This document shows, piece by piece, positions 16,559-31,648 of a stretch of 33,147 nucleotides of DNA. The translations under genes were made by a program, and so were the position numbers. How positions within the stretch are numbered: position 1 is the stretch's first letter; each line of letters begins with the position of its first letter. This DNA comes from Bacteroidales bacterium (GTDB taxonomy: Bacteria > Bacteroidota > Bacteroidia > Bacteroidales > P3), in NCBI GenBank assembly GCA_017962545.1, contig JAGCVD010000036.1:1-33147 (forward strand), in the 5' to 3' direction. The notes beneath the pieces are model-generated. The model did no database searches, was not told where the DNA came from, and worked only from the letters and a program-made list of their open reading frames with translations.

Positions 16559-16567
16559 GGGGTGATG

Positions 16568-16638
16568 TTTTTTTGAGGGGGGGGTGTTCTTGTTTTTTTT
16601 TTTTGGGGGGGGCGGGGGCGGCGGCGAGAACGCCGCCG
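16568..16638. repeat. Homopolymer tracts and GC hairpin upstream of tatA
   Basis: On the plus strand there are T7 (16568-16574), G8 (16577-16584), T12 (16593-16604) and G8 (16605-16612), then a perfect 8-bp stem with an AGAA loop (16619-16638). The tracts lie in the tatA leader and are prone to slippage, and also to assembly error. Confidence 0.75.
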
Positions 16639-16660
16639 GAATGCACGCGATTCTTAGCTT

Positions 16661-18079
16661 TTAGTTTTTACCTTTTAGTTTTTCTATCCTGGCCAGTTGC
16701 TGGGGGATGTTGATGCTTTGGGGGCAGTCCTCCAGGCACTTGCCGCAGCCGATGCAGTGGTCGGCCTGATGCTCGAGTCCTACGGCGCGGTCGTAGCCGA
16801 TGAGGTAGTTGCGGCGGAGGCGGCGGTAGGTGCGGCGCTCTTCGCCCTCGTCGGCATCGTCCATCGCCAACAGCCCGTCGTTGATGCCTTTGTTGTAGTG
16901 GGCGAAGATGCCGGGGATGTCGACGCCGTAGGGGCAGGGCATGCAGTACTGGCAGGAGGTGCAGGGCACCATGGGGAAGTCGGCATAGCGGTTGGCGATG
17001 TCGAGCAGCATGGCCTCCTCGTCGGGGGTGAGGGGGACATGGGGCGAATAGGTGCGTATGTTGTCCTGCAGGTGCTCCATATAGGTCATGCCGCTGAGCA
17101 CGGTGAGCACCCTGGGCTGGTTGCCGCTGAAGCGGAACGACCACGAGGCCAGGCTCTTCTCGGGTGCGAGGGCCTTGAGCTCGTCGGTGGCGAACTTGGG
17201 CAGGCTGGCCAGACGACCGCCCAGCAGAGGCTCCATGACGAAGACGGGGATGTCCCGCTCCGCCAGCTGGTTGTAGAGGTATTCGGAGTTGGCGTCGCCG
17301 TTGCCGTCCTCGGACAGCGAGGCGGCGTGGCGCCAGTTGACATAGTTGTGCTGTATAAGCACCTGGTCCCAATGCACTTTGCCGTGGAGCGAGAGGGCGT
17401 AGTCGAAGACATTCACGTCGCCGTGGTAGGAGAAGCCGAGGTTGCGGATGACACCTTTCTCGCGCTGCTCCATGAGCCATTCGAGGATGCCGTTCTCCTC
17501 GAAGCGGGCCTTGAAGGCGCTCATGGCATCCATGCGTGCACCGTCTTTGCCGCGCATGGGAAGGCCCACGCAGTGCAGCATATAGAAATCGAGATAGTCG
17601 GTCTGGAGCCTCTCGAGCGACTGATGGAACATCTCGATGCTCCCCTCGCGGGTAGCCGTCTCGGCCGACATATTCGACATCTTGGTATCAATGAGATAGC
17701 TGCTGCGGGGGTGGCGACTGAGGGCGATGCCCATGGCCTTCTCGCTGCGGGCGCGGCAGTAGCGCGGGGCGGTGTCGTAGAGGTTGACGCCGTGGGCCAT
17801 GGCATAGTCCGTCAGGCGGTTGATCTGCTCCTGGTCGAGGTCGCGCTCCTGCTCGGGGAGGTCGCTGTCCTGCACCACGGGGAGGCGCATGCAGCCATAG
17901 CCCAGCAGCGAGACGCGCTCGCCGTGTGTGCCCGTGCGGTAGGTCATCTTGTCGGTGGGCACCTCGCCAAGTTCAAACCCCTCGGCCTGTGTGGCGTTGG
18001 GGTTCTTGCATCCGGCAGCGAGGGCGGCGGTGGCCACGGCGCCGGCACCCAGTCCTTTCAGGAAATCTCGTCTGTCCAT
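16661..18079 (-). CDS. Tat-exported aldo/keto reductase with 4Fe-4S clusters
   Basis: The 472-residue protein starts with a twin-arginine signal (MDRRDFLKGLGAG) and a lipobox-like LAAGC with Cys24, so it should be exported folded and perhaps lipidated. The middle is an aldo/keto reductase barrel: LGYGCMRLP, NLYDTAPRY (Asp and Tyr of the tetrad), IDTKMS (Lys), LHCVG (His). The C-terminal part binds Fe-S clusters: CTSCQYCMPCP near residue 374 and CIGCGKCLEDCP near residue 446. It likely moves electrons to or from a carbonyl substrate, which is not known. The tat genes next to it on the same strand provide its export route. The C-terminal KLKGKN is coded by a small CTTTTAGTTTTT repeat. Confidence 0.88.
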   Translation of the reverse strand: MDRRDFLKGLGAGAVATAALAAGCKNPNATQAEGFELGEVPTDKMTYRTGTHGERVSLLGYGCMRLPVVQDSDLPEQERDLDQEQINRLTDYAMAHGVNLYDTAPRYCRARSEKAMGIALSRHPRSSYLIDTKMSNMSAETATREGSIEMFHQSLERLQTDYLDFYMLHCVGLPMRGKDGARMDAMSAFKARFEENGILEWLMEQREKGVIRNLGFSYHGDVNVFDYALSLHGKVHWDQVLIQHNYVNWRHAASLSEDGNGDANSEYLYNQLAERDIPVFVMEPLLGGRLASLPKFATDELKALAPEKSLASWSFRFSGNQPRVLTVLSGMTYMEHLQDNIRTYSPHVPLTPDEEAMLLDIANRYADFPMVPCTSCQYCMPCPYGVDIPGIFAHYNKGINDGLLAMDDADEGEERRTYRRLRRNYLIGYDRAVGLEHQADHCIGCGKCLEDCPQSINIPQQLARIEKLKGKN

Positions 18080-18207: not shown

Positions 18208-19515
18208 CTATTTTTCTGTTTTTACCGTTATCAGTTTCACCTTCTTGCCCGAAGGCACATATTCCATGCTGAAGCCGTAGATGGCGTCATACACCGATTC
18301 GTATTTCCCCATCATCTGGGTCACCACGTTATCGCCGCGTGTCGTCTGGAGGGCGTAATGGTAAACCACGCTGTCCTCCTCGGCTGCATACGACACCAAG
18401 TGACGGGTGGAACGGACGATGATGCTCTGGAGGACACGGTCCATGGCCATTTCCACATCGGACGGGTTGGCCTCGCTGTCGTTGATGTTCACCCGCGAGC
18501 CGTCGGCGGTGTACACCAGATAGATGTCCTGCAGTTCGACCTCGGTGGTGTCGAACACCAACGACTCCTCGCCGAAGGCCTCGTAGTCCTTCAGGAAGCA
18601 GTCGAGCAGTCTGCGGGACGACGGGTCAAATCCGTTGGAACTATGCACCTTATAAATCACGCGTTCCTCAATCGACTCATTCTTCGCCACCCAGTCGTAG
18701 TAGGTCCCTTCGGAGAAATCGGTTCCGAAGTACTTCATATCGATGAGCATCTCGACGGCAATCTGGGCCGGTTCGCCCACAAAGTACGCCTGGTCCTCGC
18801 CATAGGCGCCCACCAAGGTCAGCGCTTCGTCCAGCCCAGCCTTGTCGCCCAGCGGTCGGGCGGCGCAAAGCTCGGTGTGCAGTTCCCCGCCGTCGTCCAT
18901 CACGTAGGTGTTCGCCACGGGGTCGGCGACGAAAACCAGCGGCCAGAGGATGGCCAGCGAGTTGTTGGTCACGTGCAGCAGGCAGGAGAACCAGATGCTG
19001 AGGTTGATGGTCAGCCAGCACATCACCAGGGCCATGCCGAAGATGTCGAGCAGACCCAGCACCATGCCCCAGCCGAAGGAGCCAAAGCCCGAGATGTGAC
19101 ACAGGGCAAAGCACGCCGATGTGATGAGGGCGTTGATCCACCGTTGTTTGAAGGTGTCCTTGACCTTCAGCCACACGATGATGAAAGCCACGATGAACAG
19201 CAGTCCCCAGAGGCCCATCTCGCTCACCGCGAAGAAGGCCATCAGGGCCAGGCAGACGATGGTCGTCCACATCTTGCCCACGCCCCAGAGGCGGAAGGCG
19301 AACTCTTCGAACACAGGCTGTATGAGACACAGCAAGAGCAGTGTGAGCACCGGCATGTGCTGGAAGATGCCCTTGGCCATCTCTATCAGGGCCGACTGGC
19401 CTTCCACATAGCCCGCCTTGCTGAGCACTTCGGACAGCACCAACGAGACAATCCAGATGCCCAGGCCAATGAAGAGCATCGGGAGAAAACGTTTGTCGTA
19501 TCGCTTAAATTTCAT
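18208..19515 (-). CDS. CPBP-family intramembrane metalloprotease with C-terminal extension
   Basis: The N-terminal half (residues 1 to about 200) is a polytopic membrane protein with the CPBP (CAAX protease/Abi) motifs: EEFAFR (Glu70, Glu71, Arg75), FALCH (His140) and HVTNN (His181, Asn185). These form the intramembrane active site. Residues 200-435 form a soluble region of unknown fold, longer than usual for the family. Targets are not known; family members process prenylated or small membrane proteins, or protect against bacteriocins. It is divergent from the DUF2589 operon and could share regulatory DNA with it in the 538-nt gap. Confidence 0.85.
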   Translation of the reverse strand: MKFKRYDKRFLPMLFIGLGIWIVSLVLSEVLSKAGYVEGQSALIEMAKGIFQHMPVLTLLLLCLIQPVFEEFAFRLWGVGKMWTTIVCLALMAFFAVSEMGLWGLLFIVAFIIVWLKVKDTFKQRWINALITSACFALCHISGFGSFGWGMVLGLLDIFGMALVMCWLTINLSIWFSCLLHVTNNSLAILWPLVFVADPVANTYVMDDGGELHTELCAARPLGDKAGLDEALTLVGAYGEDQAYFVGEPAQIAVEMLIDMKYFGTDFSEGTYYDWVAKNESIEERVIYKVHSSNGFDPSSRRLLDCFLKDYEAFGEESLVFDTTEVELQDIYLVYTADGSRVNINDSEANPSDVEMAMDRVLQSIIVRSTRHLVSYAAEEDSVVYHYALQTTRGDNVVTQMMGKYESVYDAIYGFSMEYVPSGKKVKLITVKTEK

Positions 19516-19695
19516 AGTACAAATGGTTTAATACTTAATCTGATATCCCTTTAACGCACCGACGGCGTTTTTATTGTCCTCCGGCGTTTTTTTTCACCAT
19601 TGCCGCAACTTCGACTCACGCCCGAGGCCTCTCTGCCTGACCCTGGCCGCCCTGTCGCCGCGCCTTCGCCAGTAGCTCGTTTCATCCATGTTTGT

Positions 19696-19760
19696 TCTTC
19701 GTTTCTTCTTCGATTGTTCTTCGTTTTGAAATCGAAGAACAATCGAAGAAGAAACGAAGA
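19696..19760. repeat. Perfect 28-bp inverted repeat
   Basis: Arms at 19696-19723 and 19733-19760 are exact reverse complements with a 9-nt loop. The arms are themselves built from TTCTTCG-like units, and a partial third copy (ATCGAAGAAGAAACGA) follows at about 19764. Possible roles are a terminator or insulator between divergent units, a small RNA, or a protein-binding site. Confidence 0.75.
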
Positions 19761-19777
19761 TAAATCGAAGAAGAAAC

Positions 19778-19931
19778 GAGGGCGCGGCGAGGACGGGGTG
19801 GAGCCAGGGCGGGGACGGGGCGCAGGGTGGACGACAGCGGCAGAGGCCGGCGGGACAGGGCGGGTTCCGACGATGGACAGGGAGGGCCGTGCAAAGGGGC
19901 AGAGAGGGGGAAGAAGCGGGGAAACGGGGGG
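19778..19931 (+). other. G-rich tract with quadruplex potential
   Basis: The plus strand carries many runs of three to six G (for example in 19795-19830 and 19900-19931) with short spacers, ending just before the AT-rich promoter. Such a pattern could form G-quadruplexes; function is not shown by sequence alone. Confidence 0.5.
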
Positions 19932-19970
19932 CTTGTTGATAAAAAATTTTGTTAAATTTCGGTCAAAAGA

Positions 19971-20001
19971 GTTGCTATATAAAAAAAAAGACGTATATTT
20001 G
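19971..20001 (+). promoter_or_regulatory. Promoter of the DUF2589 operon
   Basis: TTG at 19972-19974 and the -7 box TATATTTG (19994-20001) are 19 nt apart, fitting the Bacteroidetes consensus. The spacer contains a run of nine or more A. The leader of about 45 nt (to the ATG at 20054) is A-rich, typical for well-expressed Bacteroidales genes. No comparable promoter was found inside the operon. Confidence 0.7.
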
Positions 20002-20053
20002 CAGCGTCGAACAAAGAGACAGAAAAAATAATAACAACTAAAAACATATAACT

Positions 20054-20902
20054 ATGGCAGGAAATGATGCAAGCAGCAAAACACTTGGAGCACTGAACGG
20101 TATCCCCTTCGAGAGTATCATCGGAGGGCCTCTCTCCGCATGTATCAAGGCCCAGGCCGAAGCCGCCGTGTCGACGGTCAATTTCATCGAGTCGGTGGGT
20201 TTGACCAAGGGTGCGGACGGCCGAAGCGAGGCCGTTTATGTGGTCTTCACCTATGTACAGAATGGCCGCAAGGTGAACGTCAGCGTCCCCCTGCTGGCCA
20301 TCGTCCCCATCCCCTACATTGCCATCAACAACATCAGCCTCGACTTCAAGGTGGCCATCACAGGCACTGACTCGTCGTCGGTGGTCGACGAGGAGTCGCT
20401 GGAAAGCAACGAGACAAAAGAGACCTCGTCGAAGAAAGGCGGCGGTTGGCTCACCACACGCAAGACCAGCAAGATGACCACGTCGGTGTCGACCAAGAAG
20501 GACTCGAAGTCGACGCAGGACTCGGCGTTCAGCATCGAGGCCACGATGGACGTGCACGTGCAGGCCGGCCAGGAGTCGATGCCCGCGGGCATGGCCAAGG
20601 TGCTGGAGCTGCTGGGCAGCGCCATGGACGTGGTGCCCGAGAAGGGCGAGCTGACCGTCGAAGGTCCCTACGAGGATGATGCGAAGAAGAAATACCTCAT
20701 TGCCCGCTACAAGAGCCCCGACGGACTCTTCACACCGAATGCCATCAAATGCGGCAGCGACGCGGGCAACGTGGTGCAGGACGGCATAGCCAAGCGCTTC
20801 AGCGTCACCGGCGAGAGCGCCACCATCAATGTCTACGCCCTGGACGAGAACGGAAATGCCGGCAGCGAAAAACTCATGGACCGCACCATATCTCTCAAAT
20901 AG
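20054..20902 (+). CDS. DUF2589 protein, paralog 1
   Basis: The 282-residue protein is a full DUF2589-type protein of unknown function. Four shared motifs are seen: an N-terminal helix PFESIIGGPLSACIKAQAEA (residues 18-37), the hydrophobic VPLLAIVPIPYIAI (78-91), the KKDSKSTQDSAFSIEATMDV region (148-167), and MPAGMAKVLELL (176-187). Between them lies a Ser/Lys/Glu-rich linker. The C-terminal part after residue 195 holds a further beta-rich domain with ARYKSPDGLF, shared with paralogs 2 and 3. There is no signal peptide or membrane segment, so it is presumably cytoplasmic. As the first gene after the promoter it is probably the most abundant component. Confidence 0.85.
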   Translation: MAGNDASSKTLGALNGIPFESIIGGPLSACIKAQAEAAVSTVNFIESVGLTKGADGRSEAVYVVFTYVQNGRKVNVSVPLLAIVPIPYIAINNISLDFKVAITGTDSSSVVDEESLESNETKETSSKKGGGWLTTRKTSKMTTSVSTKKDSKSTQDSAFSIEATMDVHVQAGQESMPAGMAKVLELLGSAMDVVPEKGELTVEGPYEDDAKKKYLIARYKSPDGLFTPNAIKCGSDAGNVVQDGIAKRFSVTGESATINVYALDENGNAGSEKLMDRTISLK

Positions 20903-20933
20903 CCCTATACCTTAACCATTAAACTGTAATCCC

Positions 20934-21824
20934 ATGGCACAGAACTCAACAATAGACACAACCCCCTCGTCGGTGGCAACCAACGCACTGAACGACCTGC
21001 CATTCGACAACCTCATCGGTGGACCCCTCAACGCCTGCGTCAAGGCCCAGGCCGACGCGGCCATGACCACATGGAACTTCATCAAGGAGGTGGGCCTGTC
21101 GGAAGACAAGGACGGCAACCGCACGCTGAACTATGTGTCGTTCTCCTACAACAAGAACGGCCGCCAGTGCACTGTCAACGTCCCCCTGCTGACCATCGTC
21201 CCCATCCCCTATATCGCCATCCGCGACATCGACATCGCCTTCAAGGCCAAGATCTCGGCCTCGTCGTCGACCACCGAGACCAAGAAGGAGAGCGTCGAGA
21301 AGAACTTCAGCAACAAGACCAAAGTGTCGGGCGGCACCTGGTTCGTGCGCGCCTCGACCGAGTTCCAGGCAGGCTACTCGAGCAAGAAGGACTCGACCGC
21401 CACACGCGATTCGAAGTACTCGGTGGAGTACACCATGGACGTGGCCGTCAAAGCCGGACAGGACGACATCCCCGCCGGCATGGCCAAGATATTGGAACTG
21501 CTCAACGAGTCGGTCGACACCGTCGAGAAGGGCGGCAACCTGCACCTCTCGACCTCGGTGGTGAACCTCGCCAGCGAGAACAACGCCGACCACTTCATCT
21601 ACATCACCTACAAGGACGAAGACGGCCTGTACAAGAACGACAAGAGCCTTATCTCGGTCAAGAAACGCGACACTTCGGGCAACTTTACCGCCGCCACCAA
21701 CGAGGACTGCAAGCTGAACGAGGACGACCCCGGATTCACCCTCGAGTTCCTCACGGAGGGAACCTACCAGATTGCCGCCGGCACGAAAGGCGACAAGAAG
21801 GCCACCGTGCAGGTGATACATTAA
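20934..21824 (+). CDS. DUF2589 protein, paralog 2
   Basis: This 296-residue protein is the closest relative of paralog 1. Its motifs are LPFDNLIGGPLNACVKAQAD (residues 22-41), VPLLTIVPIPYIAI (83-96), SSKKDSTATRDSKYSVEYTM (149-168) and IPAGMAKILELL (179-190). The linker includes GGTWFVRAST, matching GGGWLTTRKTS of paralog 1, so even the linker keeps a pattern. The C-terminal domain has ITYKDEDGLY and a final strand-rich stretch (FTLEFLTEGTYQIAAG), like an Ig-type or similar beta-sandwich. It begins 31 nt after paralog 1. High C/G at third codon positions is shared with the whole operon. Confidence 0.85.
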   Translation: MAQNSTIDTTPSSVATNALNDLPFDNLIGGPLNACVKAQADAAMTTWNFIKEVGLSEDKDGNRTLNYVSFSYNKNGRQCTVNVPLLTIVPIPYIAIRDIDIAFKAKISASSSTTETKKESVEKNFSNKTKVSGGTWFVRASTEFQAGYSSKKDSTATRDSKYSVEYTMDVAVKAGQDDIPAGMAKILELLNESVDTVEKGGNLHLSTSVVNLASENNADHFIYITYKDEDGLYKNDKSLISVKKRDTSGNFTAATNEDCKLNEDDPGFTLEFLTEGTYQIAAGTKGDKKATVQVIH

Positions 21825-21861
21825 AAGGTAAAACCATATTTAATAAAGGAAAGGACAAACG

Positions 21862-23154
21862 ATGGATTTAGCAAATATGTTCAAGGACCTCACCGGAGGC
21901 GACCTGAAATTAGATTCGAACGTGCTGAACGGCGCACTGGAGACCCTCGGCATCCTCAACCAGAAAAAGGAGGAGAACGACAAGGCCAAAGAAGCGAAGA
22001 AGGATGGTGAGCCGGAAGAAGAAGGCCAAAAAGAGAAGAAAGAGATAACCGAGACCGCCGTGCAGACCGACGACGGCAACTTCCGCGCCGCCAACGCAGA
22101 ACTGGACAAAGCCGTGGAACTGAGCAAGTCCATGGACGCCAAACTGGACCTGAAGGATGTGGTGGCCCCCACCACTATGGGCGAGACCGCCATCAAACAG
22201 ATGGAGAACGTCAACATGTCGAAACTCATCGGCGCGCCCATCAACGCCGCCGTAGAGGCCCAGTTCGACGCCGCCCGCAAGATGCTGGCATGCGTCAAGG
22301 AGATTGGCGTGAAGGACGACAAGCTGGCCACGGTGACTTTCAACTTCACGACGCACGGCAGGAAGGCCGCCATGACCGTCCCCCTGCTCACGCTGGTGCC
22401 CATCTCGGCCATGCGCATCAAGGAGTTGACCTACGAATTCAAGCTGAAGATTGACACCGGAAGCTCCATCAACCTGCAGAGCTCGGCCGAGAGTTCCATC
22501 TCCTATGGCACCGGCATCAACAGCAAAAGCCAGGGCCAGAGCGGACAGAGCGGCCAAGGTAGCCAGGGCGGACAGGGCGACGAAAAGAAGTCCGACCTCT
22601 CGCAGAAATCCATCGACACCCTGAAGAACGCCGCCAAGCCCGAGTCGACCTTCTCCACCTCGTTCTCGTCGAAGAAGGACTCGCGCGCCACGCAGAGCTC
22701 CAAATACGACGTCGAGACCACCATGGACATCTCCATGACCGTGGGACCCGAGGACCAACCCGCAGGCATCTCGAAGATGCTCGAGATACTGAACAACACT
22801 ATCGAGATCCACAACCCCGACGGCGAACTGACGGTCGACAACCACCGCGTCGACCTCGTCAACGGTGTGGCAGTGGCCTCGGTGACCTACATCGACGGCA
22901 ATGGACTCTACGCCCCCGGCAAGGTGACCTGCAAACTGAACAACGCCAAGGACGACAAAATCAGGGTCATCGCCATGGACAACGGCAACCAGGTGGACCT
23001 CCTTTTCATCCAGGAAGGGTGGTACACCGTCACGGCGGGCAAACTGAGCACCTACATTATCGTCGACGACCCGACCAAGGCCCCGGCCTCCACCGAGGAG
23101 ACCAAGAATGGAGCCCCCGCCCCTGATGAAGAGGAGCCTAAAGTAGAAAAATAA
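21862..23154 (+). CDS. DUF2589 protein with N-terminal extension, paralog 3
   Basis: In 430 residues this protein has an added N-terminal region of about 115 residues, with a charged Lys/Glu stretch (35-62), then the DUF2589 core: MSKLIGAPINAAVEAQFDAA (119-138), VPLLTLVPISAMRI (173-186), a Gly/Gln/Ser-rich linker (about 221-240, SQGQSGQSGQGSQGGQG), SSKKDSRATQSSKYDVETTM (269-288) and QPAGISKMLEIL (299-310). The C-terminal domain again shows VTYIDGNGLY and EGWYTVTAG and ends in a Pro/Glu-rich tail. It is more divergent than paralogs 1 and 2, suggesting a distinct place in an assembly. It starts 37 nt after paralog 2. Confidence 0.83.
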   Translation: MDLANMFKDLTGGDLKLDSNVLNGALETLGILNQKKEENDKAKEAKKDGEPEEEGQKEKKEITETAVQTDDGNFRAANAELDKAVELSKSMDAKLDLKDVVAPTTMGETAIKQMENVNMSKLIGAPINAAVEAQFDAARKMLACVKEIGVKDDKLATVTFNFTTHGRKAAMTVPLLTLVPISAMRIKELTYEFKLKIDTGSSINLQSSAESSISYGTGINSKSQGQSGQSGQGSQGGQGDEKKSDLSQKSIDTLKNAAKPESTFSTSFSSKKDSRATQSSKYDVETTMDISMTVGPEDQPAGISKMLEILNNTIEIHNPDGELTVDNHRVDLVNGVAVASVTYIDGNGLYAPGKVTCKLNNAKDDKIRVIAMDNGNQVDLLFIQEGWYTVTAGKLSTYIIVDDPTKAPASTEETKNGAPAPDEEEPKVEK

Positions 23155-23171
23155 TAATTAAGGAATAGACT

Positions 23172-23936
23172 ATGGCAACAACGCTGAAAGACATACTCGG
23201 AGCCATGCTGAGCGATGCCATACGCGCCCAGCACGACGCCAACACCCACCTCCAGATGCTCTCGGAGCAATACGCCGCCAACGGCCGCCTGGCAGGCATG
23301 AAACTGCCCTCGGCCGCCATCGGCGAACTGACCCTCTCGCTCAACTATGCCATCACCCAGGGCATTGAGGAGAGAGAGGAGGAAGGCATCAACAACCAGA
23401 GCATCGACAAGGCCCTCAAATACATCTGCAACGAGGTGTCGGAACTGCTCATCAAGACCATGGTGCAGAGCATCCAGACCTCCGGGGCCGACTACAAGAC
23501 CAACTACGCCTTCATCGACACCCTCACCGCCAACAAGGAGTTCCTGCGCCACCTGCGCCGCCGCTTCTATGCACTCCTCAACGACAACAAGGAGGGCATC
23601 ATGAACGGCGACAAGCTCGACGAGGACACCATGCGCGGCATCCTCTACGAGTCCGCCAAGGAGCAGCTGCTCGACCACGAGGACATCCGCAACCTCTTCG
23701 CGCAGGCCGACGCCGCCGAACTGCGCGAACACATATACGCCGAGTTCGACCGCGTGCTGAGGAAGGAACTGGACGACATCATGCGCGAGAGCTCCATGCA
23801 GTCGTTCCGCCGCATCCAGCGCTACGGCTCCCTCAACGTGGAAATCGACAACGAGGCCCTGGCGCAGCTGCCCCCCTCGGCCGTGCAGACGATGACCATC
23901 ACCATCATCCCGCCCGACAACATCACCGTCAAATAG
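23172..23936 (+). CDS. Helical protein, probable divergent DUF2589 relative
   Basis: The 254-residue protein is not recognised by any named family I can recall. Its first 30 residues (LKDILGAMLSDAIRAQHDAN) resemble the IGGPLxACxxAQ helix of its neighbours, the segment LAGMKLPSAAIGELTLSL may stand for the VPLLTIVPIP strand, and the C-terminal LNVEIDNEALAQLPPSAVQT may match the TMDVxVxA...PAGM strand. The middle (about residues 70-215) is instead highly helical and charged (FLRHLRRRFYALL, REHIYAEFDRVLRKELDDIM). A reasonable reading is a DUF2589-like shell in which the linker has been replaced by a helical domain. It starts 17 nt after paralog 3, so it belongs to the operon. Confidence 0.7.
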   Translation: MATTLKDILGAMLSDAIRAQHDANTHLQMLSEQYAANGRLAGMKLPSAAIGELTLSLNYAITQGIEEREEEGINNQSIDKALKYICNEVSELLIKTMVQSIQTSGADYKTNYAFIDTLTANKEFLRHLRRRFYALLNDNKEGIMNGDKLDEDTMRGILYESAKEQLLDHEDIRNLFAQADAAELREHIYAEFDRVLRKELDDIMRESSMQSFRRIQRYGSLNVEIDNEALAQLPPSAVQTMTITIIPPDNITVK

Positions 23937-23973
23937 GCATACGCCAACGCTTAAGCTATAATCTCAAACCATT

Positions 23974-25077
23974 ATGGCAGACAACGAGAACAACGACAAC
24001 AAACAATCATACGGTATTGCGGAGGCATTGACGGAAGCCCTCGAGGCAGCGGTGTTCGCCGACTGCAGCGCGTGCTATAAGGCTTACGACATGATCGAGA
24101 AGTACGCCTATGGCTACGACCCCGACGACGACAGCGTCATGAATCGCGACAACAACAACGACGACACGACTGCCTCCATGAACCGGACGCTCGACATGGC
24201 CGAGTTCAACATCACCGGTTCCGACGGGCAGCCCCGCACGGTGTACATCCCCAAAATCACCATGATGCCCTTGCCGCTGCTGCACGTCACCGAGGCCACC
24301 TTCGACATCGAGATGAACGCCAACATCGTGACTGTGAAGAACACCGAAGAGGCCAAGATGAACCCCGACACCACGCCGACTTCTTCCGACACCCCGGGCA
24401 CCTACCGGCCCACGGCAGAAGAGGCGGCCGCCAGCCAGGCCATAGCAGGCACAAGACCCAGCTCCACCGACGCGACGACAGGGTCGAGACCCGCCTCCAC
24501 CGCCGTGTCAGGCTCACGCCCCTCCTCCAACACCTCGACAGGGTCGAGGCCCACCAGCGACACCACGACCAGCTCGACCTCCAGCAGAAGCACCTCAACA
24601 GGCTCGAGGGCAGCCTCCAGCCGCGGCGGCGTGCGTGTCGACGGCCGGGGCAGCCGGAGGACCGGCTCGACAAACGCCTCGACGCCAACGGAAGCCACCC
24701 CCCTGAAACTCCAGCGTCCCACCACCGCCGGCCTGCGACGCGAACTGACCGTGGCGGCACGGCGCAAGATGCTGGTCGAGAACCGCATCAAGTCATCCAC
24801 CGTCGCCACTACCGGCAAGCAGATGGAAATCGGCGGGACAAAGAACTCCTCGTCCGAGACCAACACCTCCACCATCAACATGAAGGTGCGGGTCGAGATG
24901 AAGCAGGCCGAACTGCCCTCCGGCATCAAACTCCTGCTCCAGTCCGCCGCCAACGGCCTGGCCATCGCCGCCCGCGACCTGGCGGGAGAGCCCGTCGACG
25001 ACTATATCGACAACATCGACACCCAGGACGGCTTCGGCGAAGGCTATCCCGACGACTATGAAGACATTGCAGAATAA
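23974..25077 (+). CDS. DUF2589-like protein with Ser/Thr/Arg-rich repeat insert
   Basis: The 367-residue protein keeps the DUF2589 outline in weak form: an N-terminal helix (ALTEALEAAVFADCSACYKA, 17-36), VYIPKITMMPLPLLHV (90-105), and near the C-terminus NMKVRVEMKQAELPSGIKLL (302-321), matching the TMDVxV...PAGMAKVL strand and helix. Between them lies a long low-complexity insert (about 130-300) with GSRPxS units repeated at roughly ten-residue spacing (158-212), likely disordered and rich in possible phosphorylation or glycosylation sites. The tail is acidic (DDYIDNIDTQDGFGEG). It starts 37 nt after the helical protein. The repeat may act as a flexible tether or binding arm. Confidence 0.75.
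   Translation: MADNENNDNKQSYGIAEALTEALEAAVFADCSACYKAYDMIEKYAYGYDPDDDSVMNRDNNNDDTTASMNRTLDMAEFNITGSDGQPRTVYIPKITMMPLPLLHVTEATFDIEMNANIVTVKNTEEAKMNPDTTPTSSDTPGTYRPTAEEAAASQAIAGTRPSSTDATTGSRPASTAVSGSRPSSNTSTGSRPTSDTTTSSTSSRSTSTGSRAASSRGGVRVDGRGSRRTGSTNASTPTEATPLKLQRPTTAGLRRELTVAARRKMLVENRIKSSTVATTGKQMEIGGTKNSSSETNTSTINMKVRVEMKQAELPSGIKLLLQSAANGLAIAARDLAGEPVDDYIDNIDTQDGFGEGYPDDYEDIAE
24446..24612 (+). repeat. Degenerate ~30-bp coding repeat (GSRPxS units)
   Basis: Five or six units, each coding for about ten residues starting G[ST]RP[SAT]S, lie in tandem within the Ser/Thr-rich insert of the DUF2589-like gene. The units differ in sequence at the base level, so the array is old or under selection for protein composition. 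Confidence 0.6.
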
Positions 25078-25109
25078 CAATCCCCAAGAACAATAAATAC
25101 AGAGAACTC

Positions 25110-25328
25110 ATGCCACAGCAACAGACACCAGGATTGAAATGCCCCCAATGCGGAGAGTTCATCCACACCACAATATCGGAACTCCTCAGCGCCCAGGCGC
25201 TCCACTGCCCCTACTGCGGCCTCGAACTGACCATCAACCGCCAGGAATCGAAACAGGCCATGGAAATACTCAAGGAAGTCGACAACGCCAGCAAGAACCT
25301 GGAGAAAGCCAGCAAATTCAACGGATAA
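25110..25328 (+). CDS. Small zinc-ribbon protein
   Basis: A 72-residue protein with two CPxC knuckles, CPQC (residues 11-14) and CPYC (33-36), that should bind one zinc ion, followed by a helical C-terminal tail (QAMEILKEVDNASKNLEKAS). I recognise no specific family; the ribbon resembles rubredoxin-like or MJ0042-type small ribbons. It sits inside the DUF2589 operon, 32 nt after the repeat-rich gene and 21 nt before the minimal paralog, so it is likely an accessory or adaptor component. It is too small to be an enzyme and could bind nucleic acid or a partner protein. Confidence 0.75.
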   Translation: MPQQQTPGLKCPQCGEFIHTTISELLSAQALHCPYCGLELTINRQESKQAMEILKEVDNASKNLEKASKFNG

Positions 25329-25349
25329 ACCCATAAAACAACAATCGCC

Positions 25350-25868
25350 GTGCCTGAAGACAACACATACAGTGCATTGGACACACTGAATTTCGGAGAG
25401 CTGATTACCGCCCCCCTCAATGCCTGCGTCGACGCACAGGCCCAGGCGGCCACGGCCACCGCCGACTACATCCAGAACGTGGGATTCCAATACGACGAAA
25501 GGGAAAAGACCTACAAGCCCGTCACCTTCTCCTTCACCTACGAGACCAACGAGGGCAAGAAACGCTTCACCATCCCGCTCCTCTCCGTAGTGCCGGTGCC
25601 GTACCTACAGATTCACGACGTCAACCTCGTCTTCTCCACCGACCTCGCCGTCGAGAAGGGCGGCACGCTGGTGGGCAAAGTGTCGACCGACGACAAGAAC
25701 AAGACGGAAACCCTCGAGACCTCCAGCTTCAAGAGCGACCTCAAGATAAATGTCAACATCAAGGCATCCACCTCGGACATGCCTATGGGCATCAGCCAGC
25801 TCCTGAAGGTGATGCAGGACTCCATCTCGGTGAAATCCGTGACACCGGGGACTTCTAACGCAAAGTGA
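25350..25868 (+). CDS. Minimal DUF2589 protein, paralog 5
   Basis: At 172 residues this is the shortest version and shows the core alone: LNFGELITAPLNACVDAQAQ (residues 13-32), IPLLSVVPVPYLQI (75-88), a short linker, LKINVNIKASTSDMPMGISQ (131-150) and LLKVMQDSI. The KKDS motif and the C-terminal extra domain are missing. The start is a GTG at 25350, chosen because no ATG lies between it and the first motif and the gap to the previous stop is 21 nt. It ends four nt before the glycosyltransferase fusion gene, so the two are tightly coupled. Confidence 0.8.
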   Translation: MPEDNTYSALDTLNFGELITAPLNACVDAQAQAATATADYIQNVGFQYDEREKTYKPVTFSFTYETNEGKKRFTIPLLSVVPVPYLQIHDVNLVFSTDLAVEKGGTLVGKVSTDDKNKTETLETSSFKSDLKINVNIKASTSDMPMGISQLLKVMQDSISVKSVTPGTSNAK

Positions 25869-25872
25869 CACC

Positions 25873-27489
25873 ATGAACGACCTCAGCCAACCATTCAAAA
25901 TACCGTCCTATAAGTACGACGACGCTGTCGACGAGCTGGGCAAGATGCCTTTCGGCAACCTGATAGGCAACATCCTCACCTCGTGTGTCGAGGCCCAGAC
26001 ACGGGCGACAGAAACGGCGTGGAGGTACACCCAGTCGGTGCTGGAACAGAAGACCCCCCTGGTCTTCACCTTCCAGGACCAGGAGGGCCTGAAGCGCCTT
26101 GAGATGCCGCTCTTCACCATCGTGCCCCTCCCCTACATGAAACTAGACAATATCGACATCGACTTCGATGCCGAGGTGGGCACCCTCGACGAGCGCAAGG
26201 GCGAGTTCCTCGTCACCGTCAACAACGCCTCCTCCGAAGGCGACGCCACCCAGGTGGTCAAGACCGCCACCAACCTCCACATCGGCATCAACGCCGGCAC
26301 CACCGACATGCCCGTGGGCCTCGCCATGCTCCTACGGCACATGGGCGGCGGCCTCATCGTCGAGGACCTCAACGACCCCGCCCGCGCTGCCGAGATAGCC
26401 AAAATCGTCGCCAGCCTCGAGAAGCACGCCCTCGAAGAGGAGCAGCGCCGCGAGGAGATGATACGACGGATGCAGGAAGAAGAGGCCCAGCGCGAAGAAG
26501 AGGAACGCCGCCGCCGCGAAGAAGAGGAACGCAAGCAGCGCGAGGCCGAAGGCAATACTCCCGTGGTCTACTTCGCCAGCCCCTCCAACACCATCGACAA
26601 CACCGCCGACTACTCCGGCGCACCCCTCAAGGGCGTGCACGTCATCTGGACCAAGGCCGCCACGGCAAAGGACGGCACCAGCGGGTATTACAAGATGAGC
26701 GAGATAGACCTCCTCTCCACCATCACCTCGGCACTCCTCTGGCGCAAGTTCAACGGCCCCATAAAGCTCTACACCGACTCCGCCGGACTCGAATACTTCC
26801 AGCGCATCAACATCACCGGCCTCTGGAACGGCGGCATCGACACCTCGGTGCTCGACAGGATTCCCAACTCCTACAACCCCGAAATCTTCTACAACGCAGG
26901 CCGCATCTTCGCCATCCAGGCCGAGACCACGCCGTTCACCGTCCTGGACACCGACATGCTCGTATGGCAGCCCCTCCGGCCCCTCATCGGCGACAAGTAC
27001 GTCATGGGCCTCCACCCCGAGCCGCTGGCCAAGTACCAGCAATACTACCCCGAACAGGACCAGCTGAAGAAGCCCGCAGGCTGGAGCGCCCCGGCCGCCT
27101 GGCAATGGACGGCCGACCCCGTCAATACCGCCATCACCTACTACGGCGAGGAGGGCCTCAAGAACTACTACGTCCAGCAAGCCCTGCGCTTCATGGGCAG
27201 CAACAACGAGCGCCCGTCCGACATAGACTCGCAGATGCGCTTCGTCGACCGCCGCTTGTTCTCCATGTGCATGAAAGCAATGACCTCTGCGGCCTCCACC
27301 TTCCTCGCCTCCGACACCGACGAGAGCAAGCCCTTCACCCACATCTGGGGCTCCAACCCCACGGCTCGCGACAACGAGAACATCAACAAGCAAATCTGCA
27401 CCGAACTGGTCAAAATCATCAATACCCACTTCGCCGACATCCCCATGCCGCCGCAAGTGATAAGCGCAAGAAACCATTACAGACAATAA
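25873..27489 (+). CDS. DUF2589 - coiled coil - DUF6734-like glycosyltransferase fusion
   Basis: The 538-residue protein has three parts. Residues 25-160 are a DUF2589 core (MPFGNLIGNILTSCVEAQTR, MPLFTIVPLPYMKL, LHIGINAGTTDMPVGLAMLL). Residues about 170-226 are a highly charged Glu/Arg coiled coil. Residues about 254-538 look like a GT-A-type glycosyltransferase of the DUF6734 kind: VHVIWTKA, IKLYTDSAG (297-305), FYNAGRIFAIQAETTPFTVL and the metal-binding DTD (359-361) in VLDTDMLVWQPL. It may add sugars to the other operon products, with the DUF2589 part as docking domain; this is inference. Start and frame are clear; the gene begins four nt after the minimal paralog. No signal peptide is present, so modification would take place in the cytoplasm. 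Confidence 0.78.
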   Translation: MNDLSQPFKIPSYKYDDAVDELGKMPFGNLIGNILTSCVEAQTRATETAWRYTQSVLEQKTPLVFTFQDQEGLKRLEMPLFTIVPLPYMKLDNIDIDFDAEVGTLDERKGEFLVTVNNASSEGDATQVVKTATNLHIGINAGTTDMPVGLAMLLRHMGGGLIVEDLNDPARAAEIAKIVASLEKHALEEEQRREEMIRRMQEEEAQREEEERRRREEEERKQREAEGNTPVVYFASPSNTIDNTADYSGAPLKGVHVIWTKAATAKDGTSGYYKMSEIDLLSTITSALLWRKFNGPIKLYTDSAGLEYFQRINITGLWNGGIDTSVLDRIPNSYNPEIFYNAGRIFAIQAETTPFTVLDTDMLVWQPLRPLIGDKYVMGLHPEPLAKYQQYYPEQDQLKKPAGWSAPAAWQWTADPVNTAITYYGEEGLKNYYVQQALRFMGSNNERPSDIDSQMRFVDRRLFSMCMKAMTSAASTFLASDTDESKPFTHIWGSNPTARDNENINKQICTELVKIINTHFADIPMPPQVISARNHYRQ

Positions 27490-27527
27490 TAACATAGAAT
27501 AATATTAACCATTAAAAACACAAAACT

Positions 27528-28217
27528 ATGGCAACACAGCTTATTGAAGACCTTCAAGCCATGCCTTTTGGCGAAATGATTGGCGGCCCGCTCTCCGCTT
27601 GCATCGAAGCGCAGGAGAAAGCGGCTCTCACCACCGTCAACTTCATCCGCAACGTGGGATTTGTCAAGGACAAGGACGACAACCCCACCGACGAAGTCGT
27701 CAACGTTACCTTCATGTACAAACGAGAGAACAAGATGGTCGAACTCACCGTCCCTCTCCTCACCATTGTCCCCATCCCCTTCATCGCCATCGACACGGTG
27801 AACATCAACTTCAAGGCCAACCTCAAGAGCTTCCAGCGCGAGACAGGCAAGCAGAAGGAGGCCGAGAGCGACTATCAGCACAACTATGAGAACTCGTCGA
27901 CGAAGAAGGCCAGCCTCGGCTGGGGCAGCGTGAGCCGCGACCGTTCCTACTCATCGGCCACCGCCACCGTCTCGACCAAGAAGGACTCCGTGGCCACCCA
28001 GACCTCGCAGTACAGCGTCGAGGCCACCATAGACATCAATGTCGTCGCCCACCAGGAGTCGATGCCCGCCGGCATGGCCAAGGTGCTCGAGATGCTCAAC
28101 CAGGCCATCTTCCTGGAGCCTACCGACAAGGACGAGCAAATCAAGAACCTCGAAAACCAGATCGCAGACCTCAAGGCCGAGAAGGAGAAGGAAAAACAAC
28201 TGGCAGCAAAGAATTAA
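27528..28217 (+). CDS. DUF2589 protein with C-terminal coiled coil, paralog 7
   Basis: The 229-residue protein has MPFGEMIGGPLSACIEAQEK (residues 12-31), VPLLTIVPIPFIAI (75-88), a Ser-rich linker with GWGSVSRDRSYSS, TKKDSVATQTSQYSVEATID (150-169) and MPAGMAKVLEMLNQA (179-193). It is nearly as close to paralog 1 as paralog 2 is. Instead of the extra beta domain it ends in a heptad-like coiled coil (about 201-229, EQIKNLENQIADLKAEKEKE), which may dimerise or meet the coiled coil of the glycosyltransferase fusion. It lies 38 nt after that gene and 19 nt before the acyl-CoA ligase gene. Confidence 0.85.
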   Translation: MATQLIEDLQAMPFGEMIGGPLSACIEAQEKAALTTVNFIRNVGFVKDKDDNPTDEVVNVTFMYKRENKMVELTVPLLTIVPIPFIAIDTVNINFKANLKSFQRETGKQKEAESDYQHNYENSSTKKASLGWGSVSRDRSYSSATATVSTKKDSVATQTSQYSVEATIDINVVAHQESMPAGMAKVLEMLNQAIFLEPTDKDEQIKNLENQIADLKAEKEKEKQLAAKN

Positions 28218-28236
28218 TTAACGAAAACACCACTCA

Positions 28237-29946
28237 ATGAGTACAGAGAAGCATGCGGACCTGGTCCGCTTCAATCATTATTTTGAGCGATTGCAACAGA
28301 CAATCCGCGAGAGATGGGACTATCCCGCCCTCTGCAACTTCCAAGGAGACAGCATGACTTTCGGCCAAATGGCCACCGAGATAGCCCGCATGCACGTACT
28401 GCTGGAGGAAGCCGGAATACAGAAGGGCGACCACATCGCCCTCTGCGCCCGCAACACCTACCGCTGGGCTCTCTCCTACCTCAGTATCACCACCTACGAG
28501 GCTGTCATCGTCCCCCTGCTCGTCGACTTCCACGCCGACAGCGTCATGTCGCTCACCGACCATTCCGACGCCATCATACTCTTCACCGACCGTGACAAAT
28601 GGAAAACCCTCGACATCGAACGCATGCCTAAACTGCGCGGCGTGATATGCACCGAGGATTTCTCCATCATCCTCTCCAAGGATGAACGCATCGACCAGGC
28701 CGTCGCCCGCTGGCAAGAGGCTTTCCAGGCCCGCTACCCCAACGGATTCGGCATAGATGACGTGCACTACAACACGGACAACATGGATAACCTCTCCATC
28801 ATCAACTACACCTCGGGCTCGAGCGGCGACCCGAAGGGCGTGATGCTCACCTACCGTGCTTCCAGCGCCTCTATCGACTTCGGCCTGCGCAACATGCCCG
28901 TGTACTACGGCGACCGCATCGTCTCGATGCTGCCGATGGCACACATCTATGGTCTCACTTTCGAGTTCCTCTATCCCATCACGGGAGGAGCCACCGTCTA
29001 CTATCTCGGCGGCCGTCCCGCACCCACGAAACTGCTCCAGGCCATGAAGGAGGTGAAGCCTTACCTGATTTGCACCGTCCCTATGGTCATGGAGAAGGTA
29101 TACCGTTCCGCCATCGAGCCAGTCCTCAGTAAGTGGTACATGAGAATTCTCTGCGCCATCCCCGGCCTCAAGAATGTCATCTTCGGCAAGGTGCGCGAGA
29201 AACTCGACGCCGCCTTCGGAGGCAATGTGCGTTGCTACATCATGGGGGGCGCGGCCCTCAACCCTGCCGTGGAGAAATGCTTCCATAAAATCAAGCTCCA
29301 CTTCACCGTTGGCTACGGCATGACCGAGGCCGCTCCTCTTCTCGGCTATGAAGACTGGCGGCGCTATGCCGCCCGCAGCTGCGGCAAGTCGGTGGACTGC
29401 GCCCACGTGCGCATCGACTCCTCTGACCCCGCCCGCATTGTGGGCGAGATTCAGGCCAAGGGCGACAACATCTGCATCGGGTACTACAAGAACGAGAGCG
29501 CCACAAAGGCCGCCTTCACCGAGGACGGATACCTCTGCACCGGCGACCTCGGCCTTATCGACCACGAAGGCAACATCTACATCAAGGGCCGCAGCAAGTG
29601 CATGATCCTCTCTTCCACCGGACAGAACATCTATCCCGAGGAGCTCGAGGCTGTAATCAACAACCAAGAGTATGTGGCCGAGTCGCTTGTCGTTGACCGT
29701 TCCGCCGAGGCAGATGCTGGCGGCACCACGGGCGCCACCAAGCTCTACGCGCTTGTCTACCTCAACCCCGACGAGTTGAAGAATGACGAGGTGGACGAGA
29801 AGGATATCCCCGACCTGCTCAACCACATGCTGCGCGAGATCAACCACAAGCTGCCCAACTACAGCCAAATCACCAAGATTGAGCTCGTCGACGTCCCCTT
29901 CGAGAAGACCCCCAAGATGAGTATCAAACGCTACCTCTACAAGTAG
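28237..29946 (+). CDS. Long-chain acyl-CoA ligase (AMP-forming)
   Basis: The 569-residue protein is an AMP-binding adenylate-forming enzyme: P-loop YTSGSSGDPKG (residues 191-201), GYGMTEAAPL (about 357-366), LCTGDLG (near 435) with the ribose-binding Asp, and a C-terminal PKMSIKRYLY with the catalytic Lys. The overall pattern is that of long-chain fatty acid CoA ligases (FadD-like), which activate fatty acids with ATP and CoA. It follows paralog 7 by 19 nt without a terminator, so it is probably on the same transcript. It may work with the operon products (for example on acylation) or simply be a housekeeping neighbour. Confidence 0.88.
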   Translation: MSTEKHADLVRFNHYFERLQQTIRERWDYPALCNFQGDSMTFGQMATEIARMHVLLEEAGIQKGDHIALCARNTYRWALSYLSITTYEAVIVPLLVDFHADSVMSLTDHSDAIILFTDRDKWKTLDIERMPKLRGVICTEDFSIILSKDERIDQAVARWQEAFQARYPNGFGIDDVHYNTDNMDNLSIINYTSGSSGDPKGVMLTYRASSASIDFGLRNMPVYYGDRIVSMLPMAHIYGLTFEFLYPITGGATVYYLGGRPAPTKLLQAMKEVKPYLICTVPMVMEKVYRSAIEPVLSKWYMRILCAIPGLKNVIFGKVREKLDAAFGGNVRCYIMGGAALNPAVEKCFHKIKLHFTVGYGMTEAAPLLGYEDWRRYAARSCGKSVDCAHVRIDSSDPARIVGEIQAKGDNICIGYYKNESATKAAFTEDGYLCTGDLGLIDHEGNIYIKGRSKCMILSSTGQNIYPEELEAVINNQEYVAESLVVDRSAEADAGGTTGATKLYALVYLNPDELKNDEVDEKDIPDLLNHMLREINHKLPNYSQITKIELVDVPFEKTPKMSIKRYLYK

Positions 29947-29970
29947 GCCGAGGCCCCCAGCCCAGCCCCC

Positions 29971-30012
29971 TGAAACAACCAGCCCCGCCGAATGGCGGGG
30001 CTGGTTGTTTCA
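29971..30012 (+). terminator. Strong hairpin terminator of the DUF2589/ligase operon
   Basis: A perfect 19-bp stem (29971-29989 with 29994-30012) with a GAAT loop starts 24 nt after the ligase stop. The upper stem is GC-rich and the right arm contains GGTTGTTT. No separate long T tract follows. Confidence 0.75.
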
Positions 30013-30049
30013 GTAGCAGGAAAATTCACCCTAATGCATTAGTAGCATG

Positions 30050-30280
30050 CTATTTCCATTTCTTGTAGGGAGTGCGCAAATGTTCTTCGAGTACCGCGGC
30101 ATTCTGTGCTGCACCCCATTCACCGGAGTCCCACAGGCGGTCCATCTCGTCTGTGGCCTTCTGTGCATAGAAATTGGAAATGACCTGTCGTAGTTCCTCG
30201 ACCTTGTCCATTGTGTTCATTCTGCTCAACAATCTCAGAATGCCCAGTTGCGCCCGATTCAATTCAGTGACTTGTTCCAT
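30050..30280 (-). CDS. Small conserved protein, antitoxin-like
   Basis: The 76-residue protein (LNRAQLGILRLLSRM, VEELRQVISNFYAQKATDEMDRLWDSGEW, EEHLRTPYKK) matches a family of small Bacteroidales proteins, sometimes mislabelled as dephospho-CoA kinase, that often occur in front of PIN-domain toxins. Here no PIN gene follows on the minus strand, since the next downstream feature is the convergent terminator, so it seems to be an orphan. It is likely helical and cytoplasmic. The assignment rests on memory of the family pattern. Confidence 0.65.
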   Translation of the reverse strand: MEQVTELNRAQLGILRLLSRMNTMDKVEELRQVISNFYAQKATDEMDRLWDSGEWGAAQNAAVLEEHLRTPYKKWK

Positions 30281-30345
30281 AATGCGTTAATCTATTACCT
30301 ACACAACGGATATCGTCTCCAAATATTGTATTCATTCATGATATT

Positions 30346-30376
30346 TTTGCGGAATCGGGAATAATGTGTATATTTG
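30346..30376 (+). promoter_or_regulatory. Promoter for the Rpn-family nuclease gene
   Basis: TTTG (30346-30349) and TATATTTG (30369-30376) are 19 nt apart. The expected transcription start, near 30383, supports the ATG at 30401 as the gene start. Confidence 0.7.
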
Positions 30377-30400
30377 CATTTTGAAACAACACGAAAAATA

Positions 30401-31327: not shown

Positions 31328-31362
31328 AAGATACCCTCGTTTATTTACAATACACAAAAAGT

Positions 31363-31409
31363 GTCCAAGAAATTGTCCAAGAAATTGTGGCAATGCCGTT
31401 GCCACAATT
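31363..31409 (+). repeat. Tandem 12-mer and 11-bp inverted repeat after the nuclease gene
   Basis: GTCCAAGAAATT is present twice in tandem (31363-31374 and 31375-31386), running into a perfect hairpin AATTGTGGCAA-5 nt-TTGCCACAATT (31383-31409). The hairpin may end the nuclease transcript. The tandem unit also pairs as an inverted repeat with 31561-31573. Confidence 0.6.
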
Positions 31410-31573
31410 GGAAACCACGAAAATCACGGCCAGGACGATAGATTGAAATAATTTCCGTACCTTTGCAGTGACAACCAAAACAAGCACCACCATGTAATAC
31501 ACAGAGAATAAAGAACAAAGACATATAGAAGCGTTTTTGCTTCTCAAGGAATACGGAATCTGGACAATTTCTT
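31367..31573. promoter_or_regulatory. Promoter-like box flanked by 13-bp inverted repeats (possible invertible promoter)
   Basis: AAGAAATTGTCCA (31367-31379) and its exact reverse complement (31561-31573) bracket 181 nt that hold the -7-like TACCTTTG (31458-31465, plus strand). A -33 TTTG at the right distance is not seen. Size and layout resemble phase-variable promoters of Bacteroidetes, but no invertase gene lies in the window and the arms are short. Confidence 0.35.
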
Positions 31574-31648
31574 TTCCCCAACGAGAAGGCAAGAAACGCT
31601 CACGGTGTAATCCGTGGGCTTTCTTGTTTTGGGGAATAGGCCGTCCAG
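31560..31648 (+). ncRNA. Large leader hairpin upstream of the beta-helix protein
   Basis: Nested complementary arms pair in order: CTGGAC (31560-31565) with GTCCAG (31643-31648), TTCCCCAA (31574-31581) with TTGGGGAA (31629-31636), CAAGAAA (31590-31596) with TTTCTTG (31620-31626), and CACGG with CCGTG at the tip. A smaller hairpin AGAAGC/GCTTCT lies just upstream (about 31527-31544). It belongs to a leader of about 270 nt; class unknown. Confidence 0.5.

What the first reader, a model, noticed from the sequence alone, without database searches (positions are those of the whole stretch)
20054..28217. Operon of seven DUF2589-like paralogs, a helical relative and a zinc ribbon: candidate new multi-protein assembly
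Directly seen: repeated motifs (IGGPLxACxxAQ helix, VPLLxIVPIPYIAI, KKDSxATQxSxYSVE, PAGMAKVLELL) in genes at 20054, 20934, 21862, 25350, 25873, 27528 and, weakly, 23974; gene gaps of 4-38 nt; one promoter and no internal promoter found. DUF2589 (PF11655) has no known function to my knowledge. Inference: many copies of one fold, each with a different add-on (beta domain, disordered arm, helical insert, coiled coil, glycosyltransferase), is what a hetero-oligomeric structure would need, such as a ring, tube or lattice in the cytoplasm.
Basis: partly seen in the sequence, partly recalled or inferred. Interest (0 to 1): 0.9.

Follow-up and report, generated by a model that had tools for sequence, protein, structure and literature searches.

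The report
Nine-gene DUF2589 operon, undescribed system
A gut bacterium carries nine genes in a row, seven of them versions of one protein of unknown function, and nearly the same gene order recurs in related bacteria as an enlarged form of a small cassette found in many bacteria and some archaea, which points to an unstudied protein assembly.

Summary
Seven proteins at the stated coordinates pass the Pfam cut-off for DUF2589 (PF11655), with a helical protein and a zinc ribbon between them; gaps are 4-38 nt. Nearly the same order, A-A-A-H-B-Z-A-A(-A), recurs in nine Bacteroidales loci, window included. Slots A3 and B, less firmly A1 and A2, are orthologous between loci. The operon expands a core I found described nowhere: 75 of 80 loci from bacteria and archaea hold a helical partner H without a Pfam family, as A-H-B-Z or A-H-C. 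H resembles DUF2589 in its first ~70 positions. A glycosyltransferase-like domain is fused to, or encoded by, slot A5 in seven of nine expanded loci. Elsewhere peptidoglycan-active genes lie within 1.7 kb of the core in 18 of 80 loci; most examples were seen before they were counted. Best reading: a cytoplasmic hetero-oligomeric scaffold that holds a lytic or modifying enzyme. Conserved residues of A look structural. Structure prediction was off, so fold and interfaces are untested; function is inferred.

The parts
19994..20001 (+). Possible Bacteroidota-type -7 promoter element (TATATTTG), only plus-strand match in 19500-28400
   Evidence: sequence read. Consensus match, not proof; no full two-part match
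20054..20902 (+). A1: DUF2589 + C-terminal part, 282 aa
   Evidence: PF11655 85.0 bits; A1 slot
20934..21824 (+). A2: DUF2589 + C-terminal part, 296 aa; lies near the A protein of Bacteroidales four-gene cassettes in the tree (weakly resolved)
   Evidence: 101.5 bits; tree
21862..23154 (+). A3: charged N-terminal arm + DUF2589 + C-terminal part, 430 aa
   Evidence: 59.1 bits; slot clade 100/96
23172..23936 (+). H: helical core partner, 254 aa; N-terminal ~70 positions related to DUF2589
   Evidence: no Pfam family
23974..25077 (+). B: divergent DUF2589 with long Ser/Thr/Arg-rich low-complexity insert, 367 aa
   Evidence: 29.3 bits; B slot clade 100/95; A-B profile comparison E=1.1e-33
25110..25328 (+). 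[not shown]
25350..25868 (+). A4: minimal DUF2589, 172 aa (GTG start)
   Evidence: 77.3 bits
25873..27489 (+). A5: DUF2589 + charged linker + DUF6734 glycosyltransferase-like domain, 538 aa
   Evidence: 50.8 bits DUF2589, 33.5 bits DUF6734; alignment
27528..28217 (+). A6: DUF2589 + short charged C-terminal stretch, 229 aa; offshoot of the A1 lineage
   Evidence: 104.0 bits; tree

Best explanation
[not shown]
For: Seven of seven DUF2589 matches over cut-off. H found by profile in 75 of 80 loci L045-L124. The nine-gene order of the window is also in L050, and near-identical orders in seven further loci. Slots A3 and B are single clades over nine loci (100/96, 100/95), A2 one group with weaker support (67/88), A1 one group once its A6 offshoot is included (95/99); 14 labels need 16 changes, minimum 13, shuffled mean 65.8. 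dN/dS below 1 for all nine genes in two comparisons (dS often over 1, so rough). Of 38 columns of A conserved at 80% or more, five are polar and form no obvious catalytic set. Glycosyltransferase-like domain in or right after slot A5 in seven of nine expanded loci. Over 40 genomes, seven Pfam hits in five peptidoglycan-active genes lie within 1.7 kb of a core and no hit of the five families lies elsewhere in the fetched flanks. A pesticin-catalytic-domain relative (E 6e-17 in L047) overlaps or adjoins the end of Z in both Rhodospirillales loci, found by accident outside those families. Peptidoglycan-binding proteins annotated about 2 kb away in two of four annotated plasmid records.
Against: No structure and no interaction data; co-assembly rests on paralogy and synteny. 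Many loci have a single DUF2589 protein, so a mixture of many is not needed for the basic function. A4 and A5 slots need three changes each, so part of the expansion is lineage-specific. hhalign gives the A-H match only 56% probability. No lytic enzyme was recognised in or beside the window operon. In the 40-genome test 35 genomes show none of the five families near the core, SLT shows 0 of 94, and four of the five genes had been seen before the families were chosen. In one search the queries themselves came from near genes. The lytic and glycosyltransferase links may be separate stories.
Confidence: 0.4

Rival explanations
1. DUF2589 proteins are membrane-active effectors: the subunits assemble at a membrane as a pore or release channel that lets cytoplasmic lysins or phospholipases act (abortive infection or allolysis), with H, B/Z or C as control subunits.
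For: Neighbouring patatin, subtilase and peptidoglycan hydrolases without an evident signal peptide by eye; hydrophobic proline-rich segment VPLLTIVPIPFIAI (hydropathy up to 2.04); 24 PADLOC models matched among 113 near neighbours, 0 among 113 far ones.
Against: No clear transmembrane helix by simple hydropathy; the N-terminal helical region has near-invariant small and polar residues (A24, A28, Q29), which suggests packing rather than membrane insertion (inference); the one PDB hint to a pore-forming lectin is at chance level (E 0.39); several PADLOC matches are to generic families and the number of proteins behind them is not told.
Confidence: 0.2
2. The genes make a released particle or delivery device (injection-system-like) that carries the glycosyltransferase or lysin as payload.
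For: Enzyme place filled by different enzymes; lysins that could release a particle; a muramidase of the same Pfam family (PF11860) lies beside genes that look like type VI secretion parts elsewhere in one of these genomes (L166, the latter read by eye).
Against: No sheath, tube, baseplate or tail-fibre family among the Pfam matches seen for operon and core proteins; no consistent PHROG match in 64 A proteins.
Confidence: 0.12
3. A constitutive intracellular structure (storage granule coat, filament or compartment) unrelated to conflict.
For: Structural-type conservation; one published hint of metabolic regulation: DUF2589-related genes AF0414-AF0417 of Archaeoglobus were up on lactate (PMC3949148, one passage read).
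Against: Accessory, patchy distribution: 2 of 59 genomes of the genus, 18 of 393 in the order sample, 28 of 395 in the phylum sample, own genome counted each time; LytTR-type regulators and lytic enzymes near several loci.
Confidence: 0.15
4. Tandem duplication without a shared assembly: independent proteins amplified for dosage or drift.
For: Copies are tandem and homologous; A4/A5 duplications are partly lineage-specific.
Against: Slot orthology and fixed order across nine loci, dN/dS below 1 in every slot, different add-ons per slot.
Confidence: 0.1

Closest known systems
DUF2589 (Pfam PF11655) gene clusters, e.g. AF0414-AF0417 of Archaeoglobus fulgidus (PMC3949148, one passage read)
   Same: Same domain, genes clustered
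   Different: The passage is one sentence on expression; it describes no partner H, no zinc ribbon and no expanded order
DUF6734 family (PF20508), glycosyltransferase-like by motif
   Same: C-terminal domain of A5 passes the cut-off; second Asp of a DxD-like motif kept in 7 of 7 aligned sequences, first in 6 of 7
   Different: Fused to DUF2589 or encoded just after it; activity untested; the GT-A assignment is from recall
Zinc ribbon families (PF13248 and relatives)
   Same: Four invariant Cys
   Different: Conserved positions behind the ribbon (S47, L54) and a fixed place after B; the PADLOC PDC-M14A match (26.4 bits) covers residues 9-56 only
Gas vesicles, encapsulins, microcompartments, contractile injection systems (compared from recall)
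   Same: Idea of an assembly of many related subunits
   Different: None of their families among the Pfam matches listed for the operon proteins

Membership tests
DUF2589 (PF11655) | Profile score over the curated cut-off (23 bits) | tested here: met
   7 of 7 proteins, 29.3-104.0 bits
DUF2589 (PF11655) | H belongs to the family as a whole | tested here: not met
   No Pfam match over cut-off for the window's H; only the first ~70 positions align; 1 of 40 H members shows DUF2589, at E 0.058
DUF6734 (glycosyltransferase-like) | Profile score over cut-off; metal-binding DxD-like motif | tested here: met
   33.5 bits, cut-off 27; LDTDMLVW in the window, second Asp in 7 of 7, first in 6 of 7. Among relatives scanned by Pfam: over cut-off in L053, L055 and the G048 piece, not reported for L050 at E<=0.01
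DUF6734 (glycosyltransferase-like) | Sugar transfer activity | not testable with these tools
   -
Anti-phage defence system known to PADLOC 2.0 | Operon proteins match a defence model over most of its length | tested here: not met
   Four of nine proteins scanned (A6, H, Z, A5): Z to PDC-M14A 26.4 bits over the zinc ribbon, weak ZorA and Cmr5 matches of 14.9 bits; the other five were not scanned
Gas vesicle / microcompartment / contractile injection system | Match to a defining structural protein family | tested here: not met
   No such Pfam family among the matches listed for the nine operon proteins at E up to 1 (Z list shown to rank 25 of 60); fold level not tested
Hetero-oligomeric assembly | Physical interaction between subunits | not testable with these tools
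   Structure prediction switched off

The most novel reading that the evidence does not exclude
A-H-(B-Z or C) is a new class of multi-subunit protein machine, present in bacteria and archaea, in which one DUF2589 fold builds a mixed scaffold that arms an interchangeable enzyme (glycosyltransferase in host-associated Bacteroidales; peptidoglycan hydrolase, phospholipase or protease elsewhere), and the window holds one of its most elaborate forms.
Probability: 0.3. Interest if true: 0.85.

Novelty: categorically new. Interest (0 to 1): 0.62.

Why it matters
A domain of unknown function turns out to sit in defined cassettes with fixed partners across bacteria and archaea, and a nine-gene version is kept in order in several Bacteroidales. 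That turns an unassigned family into a testable system: which subunits assemble, what the glycosyltransferase-like domain modifies, and whether the device lyses or defends cells. The rating 'categorically new' is on sequence evidence only; a fold comparison, which could not be run, may still tie it to a known kind.

Tried and rejected
PDB by sequence for A6, for the A and H profiles and for the DUF6734 part: nothing significant. PHROGs on 64 A proteins and Pfam on 40 H proteins: no consistent family. NCBIfam on ten proteins, five of them from the window: zinc-ribbon models for Z (one, YgiT_finger, over its cut-off) and weak matches below cut-off for one relative of H. Viral origin: one IMG/VR locus, which carries the same M15 and patatin genes as the Chryseobacterium loci, and one unannotated 4-kb record among 50,697 phage records with each of three A queries: judged unlikely. 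H related to C: no. The L084 downstream gene as lytic transglycosylase (PF01464): not confirmed; only its LysM part finds PDB relatives. The L083 upstream gene: PF01471 match only, no PDB relative. L073 as part of a MADS defence system, suspected from the pooled PADLOC tally: nine of its genes give no PADLOC match. Coupling to the flanking genes (AMP-binding, CAAX-protease-like): judged unlikely, because the congener G048 has the operon elsewhere, no AMP-binding match at E<=1e-100 and its CAAX homologue on another contig.

Limits of the counts. The 80 loci are the best 79 of 165 relatives found with one peptide pattern plus one viral-contig locus; many are close relatives (Chryseobacterium, Algoriphagus), so they are loci, not lineages. 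PADLOC near/far: a script printed 145 of 263 near and 145 of 211 far ORFs; I passed 113 of each, leaving out by eye ORFs that looked spurious and the tail of the far list. The nine expanded loci count the window once (L045 is its near-copy); L052 and L046 are two contigs of one genome; L055 and L056 are close to each other. My gene caller prefers long ORFs and hid at least one real gene under an antisense ORF (L047, found), so neighbour counts are lower bounds. My notebook entry calls the L084 gene SLT-like and the L083 gene M15-like; both labels are withdrawn.
Full report
Check of the observation. A search of the held assembly, 81% complete, finds seven DUF2589 matches and all lie here. Gaps are 4 to 38 nt. 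A possible Bacteroidota -7 element stands 52 nt before the first gene and is the only plus-strand TANNTTTG in 19500-28400, but the motif is hardly commoner in the window than in shuffles, and the two-part pattern has no match there. The operon has 58.8% G+C against 51.7% (1-18000) and 51.4% (28237-33147) in its surroundings.

Relatives. A genome-contig scan gave 165 confirmed relatives, of which the best 79 loci were kept; with one viral-contig locus this makes 80. A profile survey of these shows that DUF2589 is rarely a lone gene. H is found in 75 of 80; the five without are L046 (second half of the locus that L052 begins), L124 (cut off at a contig end), L060, L110 and L116. By my count of the printed architectures 25 loci are A-H-B-Z (one with a further A), nine are expanded, 36 are A-H-C (L120 with overlapping frames), four are A-H only, two (L117, L122) have H and two A, and four (L046, L110, L116, L124) lack H and stand outside these classes. 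The hosts, by record title, include Bacteroidota, cyanobacteria, Ignavibacteria, Planctomycetes, proteobacteria, Anaerolineae and several archaea. C is a helical protein of about 190 aa; the one member scanned has no Pfam family over cut-off.

The expanded form. Nine loci share the order A-A-A-H-B-Z-A-A, some with a further A: the window (near-copy L045), L050, L051, L052 with L046 (genome G048), L053, L055 (Porphyromonas sp. COT-290 OH3588), L056, L058 (Prevotella multiformis) and L060, which differs most (an extra A in front, H not found by profile). A tree of 89 DUF2589 domains places slot A3 (9 rows, 100/96) and slot B (9 rows, 100/95) each on one branch; A2 is one group with weaker support (67/88); A1 is one group once its offshoot A6 is included (12 rows, 95/99). 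A4 and A5 need three changes each. All 14 labels together need 16 changes, the minimum being 13, against a shuffled mean of 65.8. Nine rows have long branches and the tool warns about one join (L051_B with L055_B and one more). Most copies thus look older than the spread of the operon and have kept their place. dN/dS is below 1 in every slot: 0.11 (H) to 0.54 (A5) against L050, 0.07 (Z) to 0.58 (A5) against G048, where only the first piece of A5 could be compared; synonymous change is mostly near or beyond saturation.

Distribution. The gene set is accessory: 2 of 59 genomes of the genus, 18 of 393 in the order sample, 28 of 395 in the phylum sample, own genome counted in each. In the order and phylum samples no other genome has more than four matches; the congener G048 has seven like the window. 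In G048 the CAAX-protease-like neighbour of the window operon is on another contig and the AMP-binding neighbour has no match at E<=1e-100, so the operon sits in different places. Its A5 gene is split by contig ends and was not joined.

What the proteins are not. Of 38 columns conserved at 80% or more in 64 A proteins, five are polar and none forms an obvious catalytic set. No gas vesicle, microcompartment or contractile-system family is among the Pfam matches listed for the operon proteins; four of the nine were scanned against PADLOC without a strong match. No solved structure is related to A or H by sequence at a significant level. Phage records give one unannotated 4-kb scaffold in 50,697 with each of three queries.

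Clues to function. (i) The glycosyltransferase-like domain is fused to A5 in the window, L050, L053, L055 and L056, lies on the next contig piece in G048 (fusion not shown there), and is a separate gene right after A5 in L051: seven of nine expanded loci. Pfam calls it DUF6734 in four of the five scanned (window, L053, L055, G048; not L050); L050, L051 and L056 are assigned by alignment. (ii) Peptidoglycan-active genes lie by the core in other lineages. Over 40 genomes five Pfam families gave 184 hits in about 143 Mb: PF01471 62, PF05257 13, PF11860 6, PF13539 9, PF01464 94. A frame check of the hits whose coordinates could fall in a locus puts seven, in five genes, within 1.7 kb of a core (L054, L061, L083, L090, L096) and none elsewhere in the fetched flanks. 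By length about 0.2 hits would be expected within 2 kb. Four of the five genes had prompted the choice of families; L061 was found by the test. PF01464 gave 0 of 94. (iii) Checking one rejected hit showed by accident that the Rhodospirillales loci L047 and L049 carry, at the end of Z, a relative of the catalytic part of the bacteriocin pesticin (E 6e-17 for L047; L049 by its likeness to L047), which none of the five families found. L090 has an M23 peptidase relative downstream, L084 a LysM protein. (iv) Searched with eight such proteins as queries, 18 of 80 loci have a match, every one within 1.7 kb of the core; the queries came from near genes (one of them, from L173, lies outside the 80 loci), and ten of the 18 belong to one Chryseobacterium-type arrangement (one of these is the viral-contig locus), where a patatin also stands upstream. 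Other Flavobacteriia have a subtilase downstream. (v) Four A queries found five distinct plasmid records; four have annotation near the match. Two (Deltaproteobacteria Smac51, Vibrio tubiashii) list a peptidoglycan-binding protein about 2 kb away; Vibrio sp. 16 lists a peptidase-domain ABC transporter and an HlyD protein close by; Streptomyces sp. WAC00288 lists neither. Burkholderia stagnalis has no annotation there. (vi) A LytTR profile built from the neighbours of L048, L054, L062 and L063 also matches near L173 (twice), L174 and L177, in L082 2.6 kb away, and in L165, which has no core; it matches nothing in the window. (vii) PADLOC models matched at E<=1e-10 number 24 in 113 near neighbours and none in 113 far ones, but several are generic families.

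Literature. DUF2589 occurs in one paper of the library, of which I read one passage: genes AF0414-AF0417 of Archaeoglobus were up-regulated on lactate (PMC3949148). PF11655, pfam11655 and DUF6734 give no paper; the four locus tags give the same paper. So no description of this system was found in the searches named; most subscription-journal papers and all preprints are outside the library.

Conclusion. The ring, tube or lattice is unproven. My best reading is a hetero-oligomeric scaffold that holds an enzyme, used in conflict or lysis; the last step is the weakest.

Noticed in passing
L060:5324-9100: A 1258-aa protein with about nine imperfect repeats (ASCTIKEV...KYYGLYY, by eye) before its DUF2589 domain; weak Tox-MPTase3 match (19.0 bits, cut-off 25).
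   Followed up: partly
L058:14409-16619: DUF2589 fused to a long repetitive Arg/Pro-rich tail (VRPGRVEDRPVARPN-like repeats, by eye).
   Followed up: no
   Followed up: no
L182:415-1938 (Vibrio sp. 16 plasmid pVDT1): A protein annotated with a TcdA/TcdB-type catalytic glycosyltransferase domain lies about 5.4 kb from the DUF2589 genes; annotation only, as deposited.
   Followed up: no
L106, L112, L113, L119, L123: A-H-C cassettes followed by a subtilase-type protein (418 aa) and a 66-67-aa protein that looks by eye like a protease propeptide or inhibitor.
   Followed up: partly
window 5177-7144 (-) and 8152-9003 (+): HNH endonuclease, RhuM-family protein and a sub-threshold AbiEii-like protein lie about 11-15 kb upstream of the operon.
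   Followed up: no
L165:250-3797 (same genome as L062): A LytTR-type gene, a lipoprotein-like gene and a peptidoglycan-binding muramidase form a row on another contig, without recognisable A, H, B, Z or C.
   Followed up: partly
L047:12573-13571 and L049:12905-13519: Relatives of the pesticin catalytic part at the end of the zinc-ribbon gene of A-H-B-Z cassettes; hidden from the gene caller in L047 by an antisense ORF.
   Followed up: partly
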